DNA of 26,978 bases, from positions 1 through 26,978 of the IMG/VR virus record IMGVR_UViG_3300047457_000824; one strand, written 5' to 3'. Shown here piece after piece: positions 10 to 6,223 of the stretch. How positions within the stretch are numbered: position 1 is the first letter of the stretch; the number at the start of each line of letters is the position of its first letter. The notes beneath the pieces are model-generated. The model was not told the origin of the DNA. It ran no database searches and was given only the letters and a program-made list of their open reading frames with translations. The stretch is from a virus. The translations under genes were made by a program, and so were the position numbers.

Positions 10-19
10 AGATGGTATG

Positions 20-60
20 TTGCAAGGAAAGCCCCAATCTTGCAATATTATTGAAGGGGT
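20..60 (+). promoter_or_regulatory. Possible H-type RNA pseudoknot in the leader of the first gene
   Basis: TTGCAAG (20-26) pairs perfectly with CTTGCAA (39-45). The 12-base loop between them carries CCCC (32-35), which can pair with GGGG (56-59) downstream, giving a classical H-type pseudoknot. A competing nested fold pairs CAAT (35-38) with ATTG (50-53). The structure ends six bases before the GAAGG ribosome site of the gene at 81 and would begin about four bases after the inferred transcription start. T4 gene 32 mRNA has a leader pseudoknot used in autoregulation, so a regulatory role is plausible, but this is inference from base pairing alone. Confidence 0.4.
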
Positions 61-80
61 GTTTTGTGAAGGTATATTAT

Positions 81-377
81 ATGTCTAATGCTCTTAATTC
101 GTTTGTGACTTATCTTGCTGATGGCAACACTCTTACGAGCCGCCAGGTTCGTTCGATGTTCAAGGTCGACAATGCTGCCGATCTCGCCTATCGTGCTCGC
201 AATGAGGGTATCTCTGTATACACCAATCGCGTGACGAACAGCCGTGGTCAGAAGGTGTTTGCTTATCGCCTTGGCAATCCTTCGACTCAGTTCGAGAAGT
301 ATCTCGATCAGGGTCAGATTGCGCGTGCTCGCAAGACCCTTTACCGCGATGCAATCAGCGTCTCGATGACTGCCTAA
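81..377 (+). CDS. Small conserved phage protein, winged-helix-like
   Basis: A 98-aa protein of unknown function. The start at 81 is chosen because GAAGG lies upstream at a normal distance and the sequence beginning MSNALNSFVTYL looks like the start of a family of small T4-like phage proteins I recall. The segment LTSRQVRSMFKV (about residues 17-28), then a second helix (AADLAYRARNEG) and a likely beta wing (ISVYTNR...VFAYRLG), reads as a winged helix, suggesting DNA or RNA binding. It appears monocistronic: it has its own -10 box and a strong terminator hairpin after the stop. Codons are GC-ending more often than in the next gene, as in a highly expressed gene. Function is not assigned. An upstream in-frame start at 12 lacks a ribosome site. 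Confidence 0.75.
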   Translation: MSNALNSFVTYLADGNTLTSRQVRSMFKVDNAADLAYRARNEGISVYTNRVTNSRGQKVFAYRLGNPSTQFEKYLDQGQIARARKTLYRDAISVSMTA

Positions 378-494: not shown

Positions 495-1787
495 ATGACC
501 AAAGTAATTATTGCAAAAACTAAACTTGACTGTGAGCATTTGCTTGGTCAGTTCTTGAATGATTCTCATTTTGATAATGTAATCAATGAAGACACGGATT
601 GCTATTTTCAAAGCGAAGATGAAGGCAATATTGCATTCAAGTTTCGCAAAAACTACTTCAGCAAAGAACAACAAGATGCTGCATATGCAGGATTGCGTGA
701 AGCAGCAACACAAACTCAGAATCGTGGACTTGCTGCTGGACCGAAAGGTGAAAAATGTGGTGGTCGCGAATGGGTGACTGAATTCCAATTGCGTGCTATT
801 GACTATCTCAAGAAGCAAGCAGAGAATTCTGTCATTCAAGTCAATGTACAAGATGAAATTGATTTACTTCGTGCAAGATATGAAAGCGAGAATACATCAA
901 GAGGTCTTGTTTGGTTGAGTGCAAAAGTCAAAGAAGATGAATTTGATTTTGAAACTTGGTTGAAGAAAGTTGTAACACTTCCAATTCAAGAAAGAAAACA
1001 AGAAGCACAAGGAGTTGAAGAGACTTATATTTCTGATACAACTTATGCCAATGTTGTATTCTCTGGCATTGCTGGTTGGTTTGATCGTTATCCTCGCATT
1101 CCTTATGGTCGTGCAACAGCGTACACTCAGCACTCATACGATAAATTCAAACTTGCGTTTCCATTTTTACAAACATTGGATCGCGGTTTTGCAGAGTTAC
1201 TACCAACTCGTCATGCTGCGCAGCGTGAAGCAGCAGATAAAATCGATCCAGCGTTTCTGGTTCCAGAAACTGTGTTCACTACGATTACTGTGAACAAAAC
1301 ATTTAGAACAGCAGCACATCGTGATGCTGGTGACTTTACAAATGGCTTGAGCAATCTTCTTGTTCTATCTAATAATGGAAACTTCACAGGTGGATATCTA
1401 ATTCTACCTGAAGTTCGTATTGCTGTGAATGTGCGACCAGGTGACTTGTTATTAGTTAATAATCATGAGTACATTCACGGCAATACACCTATTGAAATGC
1501 AAGATGAAGTCGCAGAGCGCGTGAGTCTTGTTTGTTACTTGCGTGAGAAGATGCTCGAACTTGGAAGTAAAGAATATGAAGATCATCGATATAATTATGT
1601 TGAGTCACGTCGAAAGAACAAAGAACACAGACTCCAGCGACGTCTTTGGAACGGTATTTCCGAAGGAATGTGGGACGAACAAGAGTGGTATGACTACTTG
1701 GAAAAGAATGGTGGAAGAAAGATGGTCGAGAAGTATCATCCAAAAGCATATGAAAAAATTTCTACCCTAGAAGATTTGTTCGACTGA
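495..1787 (+). CDS. JBP/TET-family 2-oxoglutarate/Fe(II) dioxygenase, probable DNA thymine (or 5-methylcytosine) hydroxylase
   Basis: A 430-aa protein whose residues about 190-350 match the JBP/TET DNA-base dioxygenase pattern. They show TAYT (208-211), a VFTTITVN block (260-267), RTAAHRDAGD with iron ligands H275 and D277, GGYLILPE, and HEYIHGNTP with the distal ligand H328. R342 in ERVSLVCYLRE is the likely 2-oxoglutarate-binding arginine. This is the same motif order as kinetoplastid JBP, which hydroxylates thymine in DNA to 5-hydroxymethyluracil. The N-terminal 180 residues contain PKGEKCGGREWVTEFQLRAI and look phage-specific; the C-terminal 80 residues are charged. It is the first gene after a perfect promoter and heads a run of hypermodification genes, which favours thymine as substrate. 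5-methylcytosine remains possible. AGGAG precedes the start. Confidence 0.85.
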   Translation: MTKVIIAKTKLDCEHLLGQFLNDSHFDNVINEDTDCYFQSEDEGNIAFKFRKNYFSKEQQDAAYAGLREAATQTQNRGLAAGPKGEKCGGREWVTEFQLRAIDYLKKQAENSVIQVNVQDEIDLLRARYESENTSRGLVWLSAKVKEDEFDFETWLKKVVTLPIQERKQEAQGVEETYISDTTYANVVFSGIAGWFDRYPRIPYGRATAYTQHSYDKFKLAFPFLQTLDRGFAELLPTRHAAQREAADKIDPAFLVPETVFTTITVNKTFRTAAHRDAGDFTNGLSNLLVLSNNGNFTGGYLILPEVRIAVNVRPGDLLLVNNHEYIHGNTPIEMQDEVAERVSLVCYLREKMLELGSKEYEDHRYNYVESRRKNKEHRLQRRLWNGISEGMWDEQEWYDYLEKNGGRKMVEKYHPKAYEKISTLEDLFD

Positions 1788-1788
1788 T

Positions 1789-2478
1789 ATGTGTGCAGTA
1801 ATTGGTGCTTATATTGATAATCCTAGTTCTAAGGATTTGATCACTCTCACAAATGTCTTTCGTGAATCTAGTATTCGTGGGTTGCATGCAACTGGTGTGT
1901 CATGGGTTTATGGTAATGGAATCCATACGATGATTTCTGCAACTCCAGCAGGAAAGTTTATTGAAGCGCATCCACTAGAAAAGATGATCAATGAAGACGG
2001 CAATTTATATCTGATTGGTCATTGCCGCTATTCAACATCTGATCTCAACTACAATCAACCACTATGGGATGAGAGTCTTGCGATTGTTCACAATGGCGTT
2101 GTGAGCCAAGAGATGCCTGAGAAGTGGAAAGATCTTTACGGATATGATTGTAAGACTCGTAATGATTCTGAGTTGATTCTTCATACACTCAAAGCAAATA
2201 AATCTCCGCTTGTTGAGTTTGCTGATGCCTCAATGGCTGTTGTTGAACTATACAAAGAAAAGAAACTTCGTTTCTATCGCAATGGCAAACGACCAATATA
2301 CTTTACTTCTTTGTCAAATGGTGTTATAATTACTTCTACGAAAGACATTGCTGTGCGCTCTGATCTTCCAGGATCTGCTGAAGTGCCGATGAATCATTAT
2401 GTTACTGTAACAAAGGGTGTCTTTCATATGAAGATGGTACTGATTGATAATGCGAAGGATTTACAACATGTACGATAA
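1789..2478 (+). CDS. Class II glutamine amidotransferase (Ntn-hydrolase)
   Basis: A 229-aa protein starting Met-Cys, so that Cys2 becomes the N-terminal nucleophile as in GlmS/PurF-type amidotransferases. Supporting motifs are GLHATG (31-36), GHCRYST (77-83, with the glutamine-binding Arg80) and HNG (101-103). Such domains hydrolyse glutamine and pass ammonia to a partner synthetase. No synthetase domain is fused here; the natural partner is the amidoligase encoded next, whose start overlaps this stop by 11 bases. The start falls two bases after the dioxygenase stop, so translation is probably coupled. Stand-alone class II amidotransferases paired with amidoligases are a known phage arrangement. 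The substrate is not visible from sequence. Confidence 0.85.
   Translation: MCAVIGAYIDNPSSKDLITLTNVFRESSIRGLHATGVSWVYGNGIHTMISATPAGKFIEAHPLEKMINEDGNLYLIGHCRYSTSDLNYNQPLWDESLAIVHNGVVSQEMPEKWKDLYGYDCKTRNDSELILHTLKANKSPLVEFADASMAVVELYKEKKLRFYRNGKRPIYFTSLSNGVIITSTKDIAVRSDLPGSAEVPMNHYVTVTKGVFHMKMVLIDNAKDLQHVR
2302..2330 (+). promoter_or_regulatory. Weak candidate sigma70 promoter inside the amidotransferase gene
   Basis: TTTACT (2302-2307) and TATAAT (2325-2330) are spaced by 17 bases. The -10 is perfect but the -35 matches only four of six positions and the site lies inside coding sequence, so chance is a real alternative. It would drive the amidoligase gene. Confidence 0.22.
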
Positions 2479-3340
2479 AACTACATTTACATATGGTGCT
2501 GAGATTGAATGGGGTGATATTGATCGCCGCATGAGCATTCCTCCGACTCTCGGTAAATGGGAATATGCTGAGACTGATATTGTAAATCTTCGCCCACCAT
2601 TTGAGTTTCGTGCATGTGACCCACTCGGCAAAGAACCGTATATGGGTGGCGAAGTCAACATGATGCCAACAAAGACATGGCAGGAACAAGTTGATCGTAT
2701 AATGAAACTTTATGAGATGTTTTTGGAATATGGCAACCAGCCAACGGCTTCATGTGTCAATCATGGTCACATTCATGTCTTTGTTCCAGGATTGAAAGAA
2801 GATGTTGCTGGTCTCAAGCGACTTGTCGGATACATTCAAGACAATCAGGCAGATACTATTGAAGCCTGTTATCAATTTCATGAGACATCTGAAATGAAGC
2901 AGTGCGATGGTGCCAAGATGTATCTGAAGTTTGATGGTGGTCGACCGATGCCAGAGTATATGTGCGATAATATTATCGAACTGACTACTGACTTTGATCA
3001 CTTTATCAAACTACATGCTGCTGGCAAGGATGGTGTATCAATGGGTCGCCCATTTCGATACGCAATCAATACTTACTGCATGAAGCATACTGGCACAATT
3101 GAGTTCCGTTGCTTCCGCTCGACAACAAAGCGAGAAGAAATGGAATCTCAATTTAGATTCGTAGAAAACTTCATCGATGCAGCACTCAACGGCGGACCGT
3201 CTGTTCGTGAAATTCTTGCTGAAGGAAATTATAAATTCCCACCATTCAAATGGAATCTTGATGAATACTTCGGTTGGCAGCAAACCAAGTATCCGAAAGA
3301 GCGTGGTGAAAAGAAACGTGAGTTTCATGACGCTGCGTGA
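2468..3340 (+). CDS. Amidoligase (glutamine-synthetase-fold COOH-NH2 ligase)
   Basis: A 290-aa protein with the amidoligase signature: GAEIEW near the N-terminus (residues 10-15, metal-binding glutamates E12 and E14), GEVN (61-64), a histidine cluster NHGHIHV (98-104, H99/H101/H103) and TIEFRCFRST toward the C-terminus. The family (Pfam amidoligase enzyme type) forms amide or peptide bonds between a carboxylate and an amine using ATP. The start at 2468 has AAGGA eight bases upstream and overlaps the amidotransferase stop; the more upstream in-frame ATGs lack this. With the glutamine amidotransferase before it and a GNAT acetyltransferase after it, it forms a decoration module that could amidate the amino acid attached to a modified base. 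The actual substrate is inference. Confidence 0.8.
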   Translation: MYDKTTFTYGAEIEWGDIDRRMSIPPTLGKWEYAETDIVNLRPPFEFRACDPLGKEPYMGGEVNMMPTKTWQEQVDRIMKLYEMFLEYGNQPTASCVNHGHIHVFVPGLKEDVAGLKRLVGYIQDNQADTIEACYQFHETSEMKQCDGAKMYLKFDGGRPMPEYMCDNIIELTTDFDHFIKLHAAGKDGVSMGRPFRYAINTYCMKHTGTIEFRCFRSTTKREEMESQFRFVENFIDAALNGGPSVREILAEGNYKFPPFKWNLDEYFGWQQTKYPKERGEKKREFHDAA

Positions 3341-3848
3341 AACAAGTCGCGATGAATTTGTCGCGCATATCACTGAAAGCAAAGCAGATTCTTTTGCTAA
3401 AACTTTCGTAGCAAAAGCAGATATGCAGGATCAGTGGCAATATTGTATTGGATATTGGGAAGGGGCGGCGGAGCAGGAACTGGCTGGCGCGATCATCACA
3501 ACTCGCTCGAAGAAAACCCCATACATATTCAATCTTCAGTTACTACACACTTTTGCTAAACATCGTCGTAAAGGTATTGCAAGAATACTTACTCAAGATT
3601 CTCTTGATCGCGCGCAAGGTCTCGGCACCAGTTACTATCGTGTTTCAGCAGAGCCTGGAGCAGTTGCATTCTATGAAGCAATGGGCTTTCGATTCTTAGG
3701 AAAACAGAAAAGTGGATGCTCTCTGAGCATGTTCAAGATCAATGGTACGAATTTCGCTGATGGGCTTTATGATCTTTCGGATCCTGTGATATATAACGCA
3801 GTGAATAAAAAAGGAAAGGGTGGTTGTGTCGAAGTCTTTGCGCCGTGA
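3327..3848 (+). CDS. GNAT-family N-acetyltransferase
   Basis: A 173-aa protein with the GNAT core. The acetyl-CoA loop is KHRRKGIARIL (78-88, R/QxxGxA pattern), followed by a helix and the motif SAEPGAVAFYEAMGFRFLG, typical of the C-terminal half of the fold. The start at 3327 overlaps the amidoligase stop by 14 bases; the long in-frame extension upstream is only a shadow of the amidoligase gene. GNAT enzymes acylate primary amines. In this neighbourhood the likely acceptor is an amine on the hypermodified base or its precursor, since GNATs occur in other phage thymidine-hypermodification clusters, but a protein or metabolite target cannot be excluded. Confidence 0.85.
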   Translation: MTLRETSRDEFVAHITESKADSFAKTFVAKADMQDQWQYCIGYWEGAAEQELAGAIITTRSKKTPYIFNLQLLHTFAKHRRKGIARILTQDSLDRAQGLGTSYYRVSAEPGAVAFYEAMGFRFLGKQKSGCSLSMFKINGTNFADGLYDLSDPVIYNAVNKKGKGGCVEVFAP

Positions 3849-4839
3849 ACAATTTATTCGCTGGTATGCGTGGTCATTGAAATATAATGATTGCGATCCA
3901 GCAGTGTGGTGTACAAATTATTTGCACAAGCGATACGAACACAATGACGAAGAACGTCTATGGTTTGCGTGGTTGTATGGTAACACATATCAACTACCAA
4001 CTGCATGGGTTCTGAAGAATGAGTTCCCAGATTATGAACTCGCTACTGTGGATCGTATTCGCTGGTGGAATAGTCACAACTACAAGAGACTGAGATACCA
4101 AACAGATACAAAGTGGAACAAGGGTCATTTGCCAGCCATGTTCGAATCTTATCAAGAGTTTATTGGCAATAGAACACAACGAGAAGTTTTGGAGAATTAT
4201 TATGGCGACAATGAACAACAAACTTTCGACAACCTTTGGAATAATCTTAAAAACTCTCTTTACAAATTTGGTCGCTATTCCACTTGGTTTTATATGCAGC
4301 ATCTCGCTCATACTGCTGGCATTGACTGCATACCTACTTCTCTCATGCTTTCTGATTATTCTGGCTCTCGCTCACATCGTAATGGTTTGCATCTTGCCCT
4401 CGGCGAAGATGACAAGTACGATACAAGACTTACTGCTGGAGAATGCAATGACCTTGAAAGTGAAGCGAAAGACATACTTGAAGAAACAAGAGGAAGATTT
4501 CCTGAACTCAAATTACAGGTAGATTTCTTCACGATGGAAACTTGCCTTTGTTCGTTCAAGAAAATCTTTCGTGAACATCATGGGCGATATCTTGGTTACT
4601 ATCTCGATCGCCAGTCTGAAGAAATTCAGCAAGCAGAAAAGGATGGCTGGACTGGTATTGAGTGGAATGTATTGTGGCAATCAAGAGATGAAACTCTTGA
4701 CCCAAGACTTGCAATTCGTAATGCTACAATCAACAAAGAAAAGTTTACTTCTTATGTGAGAAGTGGTAGAATAGATCGTCTTGAGTGGATGTTTTCAGAT
4801 GAAACCTCAGTACAACAAGGACTAGAAGCACTATGGTAA
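3826..4839 (+). CDS. Thymine-hypermodification protein: probable amino acid:DNA transferase (aGPT-Pplase family) or HMUDK helical-domain relative
   Basis: A 337-aa, Trp/Tyr-rich, probably all-helical protein. The features I associate with the alpha-glutamyl/putrescinyl-thymine pyrophosphorylase (amino acid:DNA transferase) group and the related 5-hmdU-kinase helical domain are the N-terminal SLRREQFIRWYAWSL block, a central RYSTWFYMQHLAHTAGI, SRSHRNGLHL, and a C-terminal ETCLCSFKKIFREHHGRYLG followed by YYLDRQSEEI. That assignment rests on recalled family patterns plus the adjacent kinase gene and needs profile confirmation. The proposed reaction is displacement of pyrophosphate from 5-pyrophosphoryloxymethyl-dU in DNA by an amino acid. 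The start is GTG, either 3826 (AAAGGG five bases upstream) or 3820; both overlap the GNAT gene. The kinase start overlaps this stop by 7 bases. Confidence 0.6.
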   Translation: MSKSLRREQFIRWYAWSLKYNDCDPAVWCTNYLHKRYEHNDEERLWFAWLYGNTYQLPTAWVLKNEFPDYELATVDRIRWWNSHNYKRLRYQTDTKWNKGHLPAMFESYQEFIGNRTQREVLENYYGDNEQQTFDNLWNNLKNSLYKFGRYSTWFYMQHLAHTAGIDCIPTSLMLSDYSGSRSHRNGLHLALGEDDKYDTRLTAGECNDLESEAKDILEETRGRFPELKLQVDFFTMETCLCSFKKIFREHHGRYLGYYLDRQSEEIQQAEKDGWTGIEWNVLWQSRDETLDPRLAIRNATINKEKFTSYVRSGRIDRLEWMFSDETSVQQGLEALW

Positions 4840-5405
4840 GAGTGATTGCAATGGGTGGTGAGCCAGCAACTGGCAAGACTACGTTGATGTTTCGATTGAT
4901 TTCGATGGCTGATGACTGGCAAGTTGTCAAGCCACAGAAGTTACTTGATGCAATGTATTCCAAGAAACTGAATCTGTATATTCTTGGCAAGTATGCAAAC
5001 GACGGTAATGTGTTTCAAGGAACAGATCGTTTGAGTATGGCTGTTCAACCAGATGCAGAGAAATTCTTTTCTGAACTATGGTATGAAGAAGGTGCGAAAA
5101 CAAATGTCATCTTTGAAGGTGATCGCCTGTTCAATGGTAAACTACTAGACAAACTTTCAGAGTGGTTTCCAAACTCATTCAAGGTTCTTGTTCTTTCAGC
5201 ATCACATGATATCAAAGAACAGCGCCATGTTGATCGTAAAGACGACCAAGATGACAAATTCAAAAATTCTCGTGCGACGAAAATCTCGAATATAATGGGG
5301 TCGCTGACTCTCATGGACTATATAGAGACAATGGTCAACGAAAATCTCGATGATCAGTCTAAGATTATTGACAATATTAGAAAATTTTACAACTGGAGTG
5401 AATAA
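4833..5405 (+). CDS. P-loop kinase, probable 5-hydroxymethyl-dU DNA kinase
   Basis: A 190-aa P-loop protein with Walker A GEPATGKT (residues 9-16). It also has LGKYANDGNVFQGTDRLSMA in the first half and VIFEGDRLFN near the middle. The GTDRLSM block after a GKY motif is what I recall of 5-hmdU DNA kinases, which phosphorylate 5-hydroxymethyluracil in DNA as the activating step of thymidine hypermodification. It overlaps the preceding transferase gene by 7 bases, and that pairing is the strongest context support. It is distinct from the dNMP kinase at 6230, which has a different P-loop and length. A generic nucleotide kinase role is the main alternative. AAGGA lies about 11 bases before the ATG. 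Confidence 0.72.
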   Translation: MVRVIAMGGEPATGKTTLMFRLISMADDWQVVKPQKLLDAMYSKKLNLYILGKYANDGNVFQGTDRLSMAVQPDAEKFFSELWYEEGAKTNVIFEGDRLFNGKLLDKLSEWFPNSFKVLVLSASHDIKEQRHVDRKDDQDDKFKNSRATKISNIMGSLTLMDYIETMVNENLDDQSKIIDNIRKFYNWSE

Positions 5406-5407
5406 TT

Positions 5408-6223
5408 ATGCAGTTAGAAGTCTCTGTAGAAGAACTACGCAAAAATAAACTATTTGTTGCAACCCCAATGTATGGTGGCTCTGCGCATGGAATGTATCTA
5501 AAGTCTTGCCTTGATCTTCAATCTGTGTGTACACAGTACGGCATTGAAGTTCGTTTTTCTTTCATCTTCAATGAATCTCTTATTACTCGTGCACGCAATT
5601 ATCTCGTAGATGAGTTCCTCCGAGCAGAAGGATTTACGCATCTATTATTCTTAGATGCCGATATTCATTTTGATCCACGCGATGTAATTGCATTGCTTGC
5701 TATGAATAAGGATGTCATTGGTGGACCATATCCAAAGAAATCGATCAAGTGGGGTGCAATCAAGGAAGGCGTGAAGCGTCATCCTGAAATTACTCCTGCT
5801 GATATGGAAAAGTTGGCTGGTGATTTCGTCTTCAATCCAGTTCCAGGAACAGAAAAGTTCTCAGTTGCTGAGCCGATTGAAGTTCTTGAGATTGGCACAG
5901 GTTACATGATGGTCAAGCGTGAAGTTTTCGGCAAGTTTGCTGAAGCATATCCACAATTGAAGTATCGTCCAGATCACGTTGGTCAAGCCAACTTCGATGG
6001 TTCACGTTACATTCATGCTTACTTTGACACTGTTATTGATAGCGTTGCAAATGGCGGTCGTGGTTCAGACCGTTACTTGTCTGAAGACTATATGTTCTGC
6101 CAGTGGTGGAGAAATATCGGTGGTCAAATTTGGTTATGTCCTTGGATGAAGACGCATCATGTTGGAACCTATGCGTTCACTGGTGATATGCCAGCCGTTG
6201 CAAACTTCGTCGGATCTCTATAA
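5408..6223 (+). CDS. GT-A-fold glycosyltransferase
   Basis: A 271-aa protein with ATPMYGG (18-24), an RARNYLVDEFL helix (61-71) and the metal-binding DxD in LLFLDADIHFDP (D83, D85). Further on are PYPKKSIKWG and LSEDYMFCQWWRNIGGQIWL, a likely acceptor-side or catalytic acidic region. This family is common in T4-like phages. There is no signal or membrane segment. GGAG (5395-5398) nine bases upstream supports the start, two bases after the kinase stop. Its position at the end of the base-modification run makes a DNA-base glycosyltransferase acting on hydroxymethyl pyrimidine an attractive idea. Glycosylation of host or virion surface molecules is equally compatible with the sequence. Confidence 0.75.
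   Translation: MQLEVSVEELRKNKLFVATPMYGGSAHGMYLKSCLDLQSVCTQYGIEVRFSFIFNESLITRARNYLVDEFLRAEGFTHLLFLDADIHFDPRDVIALLAMNKDVIGGPYPKKSIKWGAIKEGVKRHPEITPADMEKLAGDFVFNPVPGTEKFSVAEPIEVLEIGTGYMMVKREVFGKFAEAYPQLKYRPDHVGQANFDGSRYIHAYFDTVIDSVANGGRGSDRYLSEDYMFCQWWRNIGGQIWLCPWMKTHHVGTYAFTGDMPAVANFVGSL

What the first reader, a model, noticed from the sequence alone, without database searches (positions are those of the whole stretch)
1789..3848. Glutamine amidotransferase, amidoligase and GNAT form a three-gene decoration module embedded in the base-modification operon
The three genes overlap by 11 and 14 bases and lie between the oxidase and the transferase/kinase pair. A lone class II amidotransferase with Cys2 and no synthetase domain needs an ammonia acceptor enzyme; the adjacent amidoligase with GAEIEW and HGHIH motifs fits. 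Amidoligase/GAT-II/GNAT associations in phages have been predicted to modify peptides or metabolites. Here they could convert the alpha-carboxyl of a thymine-linked amino acid into an amide and acetylate its amine, yielding a neutral bulky base.
Basis: inference. Interest (0 to 1): 0.75.

Follow-up and report, generated by a model that had tools for sequence, protein, structure and literature searches.

The report
Glutamine-fed thymine amination and acylation genes
These three phage genes are very probably part of a pathway that rebuilds thymine in the phage's own DNA: one frees ammonia from glutamine, most likely for the neighbouring DNA-modifying transferase rather than for the amidoligase next to it, and the other two then probably decorate the new amine.

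Summary
In detail: GAT-II 1789-2478, amidoligase 2468-3340 and GNAT 3327-3848 overlap by 11 and 14 bases, between a TET/JBP oxidase and an ADDT transferase/kinase pair. They are under purifying selection, with complete catalytic sites in GAT-II and amidoligase.

The wiring is probably wrong. In loci picked by GAT-II alone, ADDT accompanies it in 78 of 79 (the exception is a cut contig) but the amidoligase in only 10. In loci picked by ADDT alone, GAT-II is present in 60 of 79, and the other 19 are cut at a contig end. Four divergent contigs (41-52% identical) fuse GAT-II to ADDT in one ORF. The amidoligase also occurs without GAT-II, mostly beside a flavin-dependent lyase, once beside QueF.

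Most likely: TET makes 5hmU, the kinase activates it, GAT-II feeds ammonia to ADDT, which displaces pyrophosphate as PurF does, giving 5-aminomethyl-dU; amidoligase and GNAT then acylate the amine. Cassette, pairing and fusions are shown; all chemistry is inferred. LUZ24-like GAT-II/amidoligase modules lack ADDT and are a different kind. A new variant of thymidine hypermodification.

The parts
495..1787 (+). TET/JBP dioxygenase; presumed thymine 5-hydroxylase (makes 5hmU in DNA)
   Evidence: PF12851 83.9 bits, over cut-off; H275, D277, H328, R342 near-invariant in relatives. The 168 kb record of relative L076 has neither thymidylate synthase/dUMP hydroxymethylase (PF00303) nor cytosine-C5 methylase (PF00145), which points to thymine as substrate. 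Activity inferred.
1789..2478 (+). Class II glutamine amidotransferase (GAT2): glutaminase, probably the ammonia source for ADDT
   Evidence: GATase_6 over cut-off. C2, R30, G31, H78, R80, N102, G103, N125, D126 invariant except gaps in 245 rows. Model pLDDT 92; best VIA-align rows PurF Z 23.6 (3.1 A, 217 residues), GlmS 22.1, EgtC 20.6, AsnB 18.4. ADDT pairing and fusions.
2468..3340 (+). Virus-specific amidoligase (AMDL) with glutamine-synthetase/GCS-like fold; probably N-acylates the aminomethyl base
   Evidence: Amidoligase_2 sub-threshold, relative in L119 over cut-off. Model pLDDT 88, top rows YbdK/GCS-like 1tt4 Z 10.9 (4.5 A, 218 residues) and glutamine synthetase 4lnk Z 10.3 (3.2 A, 186). 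E12, E14, E62, H101, H103, R197, N201, E212, R214 invariant except gaps in 206 rows.
3327..3848 (+). GNAT acetyltransferase; probably acetylates the DNA-linked amine or the amidoligase product
   Evidence: Acetyltransf_10 48.9 bits, over cut-off; H79, R80, G83 near-invariant, fitting the acetyl-CoA motif (motif recalled); dN/dS 0.06. In most other amidoligase clusters an LMW-phosphatase-like gene is present instead.
3826..4839 (+). ADDT (amino acid:DNA transferase family); proposed partner of GAT2. GTG 3820 is an alternative start
   Evidence: PF18724 70.7 bits, over cut-off. The ADDT of phage Simon, of the other ADDT clade, matches the solved 'Glycinyltransferase' 8z2m/8z2n at 1e-60; tree.
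4833..5405 (+). P-loop kinase; presumed 5hmU-DNA kinase that activates the hydroxymethyl group
   Evidence: Walker A GGEPATGKT; Ploopntkinase3 E 0.012, below cut-off. The gene after ADDT in phage Zemanar is a Ploopntkinase3 protein at 3e-71. Follows ADDT in most loci.
5408..6223 (+). Glycosyltransferase-like gene downstream of the kinase; membership in the pathway uncertain
   Evidence: phrog_1574 6e-60 (that family has no named function), Anp1 below cut-off. Conserved after the kinase in the window's own lineage, but also present in phages DLP6 and Cr30 without the trio.

Best explanation
The trio is a branch of a phage thymidine-hypermodification pathway. TET hydroxylates thymine in DNA to 5hmU and the kinase activates it (pyrophosphate ester). 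GAT2 hydrolyses glutamine and hands the ammonia to the neighbouring ADDT, which displaces pyrophosphate to give 5-aminomethyl-dU; GAT2 and ADDT thus form a split, sometimes fused, PurF-like DNA aminotransferase. The amidoligase then uses ATP to join a carboxylic acid (perhaps an amino acid) to that amine, and GNAT acetylates an exposed amine. Shown here: the cassette, its conservation, the catalytic sites, the GAT2-ADDT pairing and the fusions. Inferred: every chemical step, the identity of the product, and the amidoligase and GNAT substrates. My estimates: the trio belongs to hypermodification 0.93; GAT2 serves ADDT 0.85; the product is 5-aminomethyl-dU 0.65; the amidoligase acylates that amine 0.5.
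For: GAT2-selected scan: ADDT in 78 of 79 loci, amidoligase in 10 of 79; by 70% clusters ADDT 44 of 44, amidoligase 6 of 44, flavin lyase 0 of 44. ADDT-selected scan: GAT2 in 60 of 79; the other 19 start at a contig end within 2.7 kb upstream of ADDT; amidoligase in 27 of the 60. Four GAT2-ADDT fusion ORFs (L269, L315, L316, L317), 41-52% identical to one another, with all nine checked GAT2 residues. GAT2 fold nearest to PurF by Z. Amidoligase-selected clusters: ADDT in 31 of 31 representatives' records, GAT2 in 19, and in 9 of the 12 without GAT2 a DAO enzyme; the DAO of phage Simon matches the solved flavin-dependent lyase 8z2o at 7e-62 and sits beside a glycinyltransferase-like ADDT. Amidoligase next to QueF, hence possibly preQ1 (7-aminomethyl), in a Vibrio phage. 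tRNA parallel: MnmEG makes nm5U from ammonium, or cmnm5U from glycine followed by MnmC(o) (PMC3936742, passages). Pyrophosphoryl-hmU is the phiW-14 intermediate (PMC5977210, passages).
Against: No chemistry measured. ADDTs of isolates in whose fetched regions no GAT2 was found (Cygsa01, D506, Zemanar, Cr30) sit inside the GAT2-linked ADDT clade, and I found no residue that cleanly separates ammonia users from amino-acid users. Foldseek's E-value ranks EgtC, an amidohydrolase, above PurF, so GAT2 might hydrolyse a gamma-glutamyl bond. In the window GAT2 lies next to the amidoligase, not to ADDT, and in the loci tabulated the next recognised gene after GAT2 is the amidoligase in 124 and ADDT in only 6. 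The Vibrio phage record shows no TGT/DpdA family match (PF01702), so preQ1 in its DNA is unproven. Three GAT2-less clusters (L188, L220, L224) have no DAO match either. All GAT2/ADDT scans were seeded with members of this clade, and only the best 80 of more than 560 relatives were read each time.
Confidence: 0.6

Rival explanations
1. One reading: ADDT attaches an amino acid to 5hmU; GAT2 supplies ammonia to the amidoligase, which turns the alpha-carboxyl into an amide; GNAT acetylates the amine.
For: GAT2 and amidoligase overlap by 11 bases in the window, and the amidoligase is the next recognised gene after GAT2 in 124 loci. The amidoligase fold includes glutamine synthetases, which use ammonia. 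ADDTs without GAT2 lie in the same ADDT clade. CmoY-type DNA amide ligases with a glutaminase domain are predicted to use ammonia (PMC12783734, section 13).
Against: GAT2 occurs without the amidoligase in 69 of 79 GAT2-selected loci; the amidoligase occurs without GAT2 in 12 of 31 clusters; the full-length fusions join GAT2 to ADDT, not to the amidoligase (the L111 double hit is a 121-residue fragment in a broken region).
Confidence: 0.15
2. GAT2 is an EgtC-like amidohydrolase: ADDT installs glutamine or a gamma-glutamyl compound and GAT2 trims it on DNA to reveal an amine or an acid, which the amidoligase and GNAT then cap.
For: Foldseek's best rows are EgtC (4.5e-11); GAT2 is a lone glutaminase domain of similar length (229 residues); it alternates with a trimming enzyme, the flavin-dependent lyase.
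Against: VIA-align puts PurF (Z 23.6) above EgtC (20.6). Fusion to a pyrophosphate-displacing transferase is the PurF arrangement.
Confidence: 0.12
3. The trio makes or modifies a peptide, metabolite or cell-wall component, as proposed for LUZ24-like phage modules, and lies in the operon by accident.
For: PaP3, Wheelbite and Vibrio 1.262.O carry amidoligase and GAT-II genes together, the first two also a gamma-glutamyl cyclotransferase, and no ADDT (0 of 3 records).
Against: In this clade ADDT is in the records of all 31 amidoligase cluster representatives and in 44 of 44 GAT2 clusters, across TET-based and thymidylate-synthase-based phages. Among the operon genes I scanned no cyclotransferase or ATP-grasp gene was seen.
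Confidence: 0.05

Closest known systems
Glycinyltransferase plus flavin-dependent lyase of phage thymidine hypermodification (PDB 8z2m/8z2n, 8z2o/8z79)
   Same: Same ADDT family, presumed to act on activated 5hmU; the lyase occupies the place in the cassette that GAT2 has here; amidoligase relatives sit beside it (phage Simon).
   Different: Here GAT2 stands in for the lyase (0 of 44 GAT2 clusters carry it) and ADDT is of another clade. The molecule names come from the PDB listing; the biological setting of those entries is inferred.
PurF, glutamine PRPP amidotransferase
   Same: N-terminal class II glutaminase joined to a domain where ammonia displaces pyrophosphate; best VIA-align rows for GAT2.
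   Different: The transferase is ADDT, not a phosphoribosyltransferase; the substrate would be DNA; separate genes in the window.
MnmEG/MnmC pathway of tRNA (PMC3936742, passages seen)
   Same: Two routes to 5-aminomethyluridine: ammonium directly, or glycine followed by an FAD enzyme.
   Different: RNA; unrelated installing enzymes; functional analogy only.
CmoA/CmoX/CmoY carboxymethylcytosine system (PMC12783734; abstract, passages and section 13 seen)
   Same: Phage-encoded ATP-dependent amide-bond formation on a DNA base; some homologues carry a glutaminase domain; ParBc genes nearby.
   Different: CmoY is an asparagine-synthetase homologue acting on a cytosine-linked carboxylate; here the ligase has a glutamine-synthetase/GCS fold and the system builds on thymine.
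GAT-II/amidoligase modules of LUZ24-like phages (PaP3, L130)
   Same: GAT-II beside an Amidoligase_2-type protein.
   Different: No ADDT in the genome; other neighbours (COOH-NH2 ligase, RimK-like, cyclotransferase); amidoligase similarity marginal (hhalign probability 88.7).

Membership tests
Class II glutamine amidotransferase (glutaminase domain) | Cys2 nucleophile and glutamine-binding Arg/Asn/Gly/Asp, Ntn fold, Pfam score | tested here: met
   45.6 bits against 27; residues invariant except gaps in 245 rows; PurF Z 23.6
Pfam Amidoligase_2 (PF12224) | Score over Pfam's gathering cut-off | tested here: not met
   14.6 bits against 22; its relative in L119 scores 32, so it is a distant branch at best
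Glutamine synthetase / gamma-glutamylcysteine ligase fold of carboxylate-amine ligases | Shared fold over most of the domain | tested here: met
   1tt4 Z 10.9 (4.5 A, 218 residues), 4lnk Z 10.3 (3.2 A, 186), 226 chains with Z 8 or more; Foldseek TM-scores 0.3-0.46 only
Phage thymidine hypermodification system | Source of 5hmU, kinase and ADDT together | tested here: met
   TET/JBP and ADDT over cut-off; the kinase by position, own-family HMM and weak Pfam score only
Phage thymidine hypermodification system | Modified thymidine found in the DNA | not testable with these tools
   Needs nucleoside mass spectrometry; the window is a virus record without further genome
PurF-like amidotransferase (works like) | Glutaminase regularly paired with or fused to a pyrophosphate-displacing transferase | tested here: met
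   Pairing 78 of 79 and 60 of 79 (19 truncated); 4 fusions. That the GAT2-linked ADDT displaces pyrophosphate is inferred from the family
PurF-like amidotransferase (works like) | Ammonia as the nucleophile | not testable with these tools
   No discriminating residue found; needs an enzyme assay
LUZ24-type GAT-II/amidoligase module | Cyclotransferase/ATP-grasp neighbours, no hypermodification genes | tested here: not met
CmoY DNA amide ligases | Asparagine-synthetase homology | tested here: not met
   No Asn_synthase match in the trio; a different fold was found for the ligase

The most novel reading that the evidence does not exclude
A widespread viral system of four core genes (TET/JBP, GAT-II, ADDT, kinase) aminates thymine in DNA with the amide nitrogen of glutamine, through a PurF-like GAT-II/ADDT enzyme that is sometimes one polypeptide. 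A virus-specific branch of glutamine-synthetase-fold amidoligases has specialised in N-acylating aminomethyl groups on DNA bases, on thymine in most phages and perhaps on 7-deazaguanine (preQ1) in one Vibrio phage, so that phages carry base-linked amides.
Probability: 0.5. Interest if true: 0.85.

Novelty: new variant of a known kind. Interest (0 to 1): 0.74.

Why it matters
If true, phages have a second, ammonia-based route to aminated thymine besides glycine transfer plus flavin lyase, built on the chemical logic of purine biosynthesis, and they go on to form amide bonds on the base. That gives a named enzyme pair (best of all the natural single-chain fusions) for a direct in-vitro test, predicts exact masses, and assigns a role to a viral amidoligase clade and to lone GAT-II genes that databases leave unexplained or call GlmS-like.

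Tried and rejected
Amidoligase as obligate GAT2 partner: rejected because each occurs without the other. 'GAT2 tracks the mere presence of ADDT', from my first, clade-specific ADDT HMM: wrong, since one search showed PF18724 in the records of the GAT2-less representatives too; rebuilt and restated as tracking the ADDT clade. Ammonia-specific ADDT residues: none found. dUMP hydroxymethylase or C5-methylase as the source of the hydroxymethyl group: none in 10 related records, the largest 168 kb. LMW phosphatase elsewhere in the window's lineage: none in 6 records searched, of which 5 are of that lineage. TGT/DpdA in the Vibrio phage: none by PF01702. More relatives of Simon's amidoligase or of the L269 fusion by single-sequence scan: none beyond the query itself; the alignment scans were needed. 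Solved relatives of the window's ADDT, GAT2 and GNAT by sequence: none convincing. Isolated phages with a GAT2/ADDT pair: none seen in the listed rows of tblastn searches (not all records were listed).

Papers: 'Pathways of thymidine hypermodification' is not held, so what I know of its abstract (flavin-dependent lyases and acetyltransferases among the enzymes that sculpt the attached amino acids) is recalled and carries no weight in the counts; Iyer 2009 was seen only as a reference; Iyer 2013 is recalled. The listings of searches showed no open paper on GAT-II with ADDT, but only listings (and passages of a few papers) were read and the key paper is missing, so I claim no absence from print.
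Full report
What is there. The window is a 26,978-base virus record. Its first 7 kb hold TET/JBP, GAT2, amidoligase (AMDL), GNAT, ADDT, kinase, a glycosyltransferase-like gene and a dNMP kinase, then clamp and clamp-loader-like genes. The three genes of the finding are real, overlap as stated and are selected for function: dN/dS 0.06-0.22 where it could be computed. GAT2 keeps every catalytic residue checked in 245 rows and AMDL nine key residues in 206 rows, gaps apart.

Folds. AMDL falls below Pfam's Amidoligase_2 cut-off (14.6 against 22 bits), but an AlphaFold model from 31 sequences (pLDDT 88, pTM 0.89) matches YbdK/GCS-type ligases and glutamine synthetases (Z 10.9 and 10.3; Foldseek TM-scores to the query are only about 0.3-0.46). 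The GAT2 model (pLDDT 92) matches PurF best by Z (23.6), then GlmS (22.1), EgtC (20.6) and AsnB (18.4), while Foldseek's E-value puts EgtC first. A shared fold does not show function.

Who travels with the amidoligase. An alignment search with 13 AMDL rows found 455 viral relatives, of which the best 80 were read, and one hit in the prokaryote genome collection, on a 3.6 kb MAG contig that itself reads GAT2-AMDL-GNAT-ParB-like. Clustering the AMDLs of all loci fetched by relatedness up to then at 70% identity gave 31 clusters (L001 and the loci of named isolates L125-L136 were left out). PF18724 (ADDT) is in the record of all 31 representatives; of the 36 records searched only Vibrio phage 2.275.O lacks it. 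GAT2 is present in 19 clusters. Of the 12 without it, 9 have a DAO-family flavoenzyme: 7 by local HMM, 2 more by PF01266. Among the 19 with GAT2 the only DAO match is a sub-threshold one in L211. Fisher p, with that weak match not counted, is 1.1e-5, inflated because clusters share ancestry. Pfam's GATase_6 model is less sensitive (11 of 36 records) but has no match in any of the 12.

What the flavoenzyme is. In phage Simon the order is ADDT, DAO, AMDL, LMW-phosphatase-like, 5hmU kinase-like, HMUDK_hel, thymidylate-synthase family. Its DAO matches PDB 8z2o 'Flavin-dependent lyase' at 7e-62 and its ADDT matches 8z2m/8z2n 'Glycinyltransferase' at 1e-60. That branch therefore very probably attaches glycine and trims it. 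That the result is 5-aminomethyl-dU is my inference, in line with the tRNA parallel in PMC3936742 (passages read), where ammonium gives nm5U directly and glycine gives cmnm5U, which MnmC(o) converts to nm5U. 5-aminomethyluracil is named as a natural phage base in PMC11550810 (passages).

Who travels with GAT2. A GAT2-alignment scan (568 relatives, best 80 read, 79 new loci) gave ADDT in 78 of 79; the exception L288 ends shortly after AMDL, and its near twins L282 and L289 have ADDT. AMDL is in 10 of 79. The commonest content is TET-GAT2-ADDT-kinase with no amidoligase (43 loci). By 70% clusters: ADDT 44 of 44, AMDL 6 of 44, DAO 0 of 44 (78 of the 79 loci had a GAT2 domain long enough to cluster). 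The converse ADDT-alignment scan (594 relatives, best 80 read, 79 new) gave GAT2 in 60 of 79; each of the other 19 begins at a contig end within 2.7 kb upstream of ADDT, several inside AMDL or GNAT. AMDL is in 27 of those 60.

Fusions. In L269 one 670-residue ORF carries GAT2 (25-279) and ADDT (330-639) (sequence read). The ADDT scan added L315, L316 and L317. The four are 41-52% identical to one another and keep all nine GAT2 residues checked, so they are not copies of one assembly error. No full-length GAT2-AMDL fusion was seen; the L111 double hit is a 121-residue fragment in a broken region. AMDL is fused to the LMW-phosphatase-like domain in L188, and that domain to the kinase in L205.

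Trees. On the ADDT tree all 8 DAO-linked rows lie in one clade of 12 (support 100/99) and all 29 GAT2-linked rows among the other 34, which also hold four isolates in whose fetched regions no GAT2 was found (Zemanar, Cygsa01, D506, Cr30) and L073, whose upstream side is cut off (several long branches). On the AMDL tree the two contexts are mixed: GAT2 needs 4 changes, at least 3 forced by supported branches; L219 with GAT2 is sister to L222 and L229 with DAO (100/98). So GAT2 follows the ADDT lineage, while AMDL moves between the two kinds of ADDT.

Reading. ADDT chemistry on an activated hydroxymethyl (pyrophosphoryl-hmU is the known phiW-14 intermediate, PMC5977210 passages) plus a glutaminase is the PurF arrangement: ammonia displaces pyrophosphate. 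The product would be 5-aminomethyl-dU, the same amine that I infer for the glycine/lyase branch, which would explain why GAT2 and the lyase exclude each other while AMDL goes with either. In the one AMDL record without ADDT, Vibrio phage 2.275.O, the gene stands directly before QueF, with Vut_1 (YhhQ-like), QueC, GATase-like and GTP cyclohydrolase I genes. QueF makes 7-aminomethyl-7-deazaguanine, and two phages with such proteins carry dPreQ1 (PMC6884629 passages). An aminomethyl base is thus the suggested common denominator of AMDL's neighbours. GNATs of two kinds occur with or without AMDL, consistent with direct N-acetylation or with capping.

Limits. No nucleoside was measured. The scans are seeded with this clade. 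Other phage GAT-II/amidoligase pairs (PaP3, Wheelbite, Vibrio 1.262.O) have no ADDT (0 of 3), so the finding does not extend to them. The kinase is assigned by position and weak similarity. The gene order of the window is not universal.

Verdict. Observation confirmed; setting supported; wiring revised. The finding is a new variant of phage thymidine hypermodification with a glutamine-fed amination step and an amidoligase step, both testable with ordinary enzymology.

Noticed in passing
L020:3478-4869, L004:2339-3832, L058:11466-13067 and others: About half of the window's relatives carry an extra 460-530 residue gene between GNAT and ADDT (47 of 90 in the window's amidoligase cluster match my HMM). 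By eye a ParB-like stretch with differing N-terminal parts (one HNH-like); Pfam found nothing significant. It could be a nuclease tied to the modification.
   Followed up: partly
L119:4660-5121, L126:10860-11381, L205:3184-4257, L188:7215-9329: A low-molecular-weight phosphatase-like gene (CX5R motif in 92 of 93 sequences) stands beside most amidoligases instead of GNAT, and is fused to AMDL in L188 and to the kinase in L205. Its role is unknown.
   Followed up: partly
L091, L096-L101, L103-L106, L108; L300, L309: Variant cassette TET-GAT2-another GNAT-ADDT(-kinase) without any amidoligase.
   Followed up: yes
L211:10106-11611: A 502-residue flavoprotein between ADDT and kinase that by eye resembles tryptophan halogenases; it could halogenate a base adduct. 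Not tested.
   Followed up: no
L188:5584-6558; L224:10253-11665: In two clusters without GAT2 or DAO the neighbourhood of ADDT holds what by eye look like a PLP-dependent enzyme and a radical-SAM enzyme.
   Followed up: no
L125:9887-15095 (Vibrio phage 2.275.O): Amidoligase relative next to QueF, a YhhQ-like transporter, QueC, a GATase-like protein and GTP cyclohydrolase I, in a 7-deazaguanine cluster without a PF01702 match.
   Followed up: partly
L127, L128, L129: TET orthologues (45-49% identical) in phages DLP6, C48C1 and Cr30 have other next genes (peptide deformylase, hypothetical, cysteine dioxygenase), so the oxidase may feed several pathways; those of DLP6 and Cr30 are annotated as SNF2 DNA repair protein.
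   Followed up: no
window 12-377: A 121-residue protein upstream of TET is kept in most of the window's relatives whose contigs reach that far; weak phrog_4973 match, function unknown.
   Followed up: no
L234 (RGSB01000076.1): The only prokaryote-genome hit is a 3.6 kb contig in an Actinomycetota MAG that reads GAT2-AMDL-GNAT-ParB-like, so probably a binned phage fragment.
   Followed up: no
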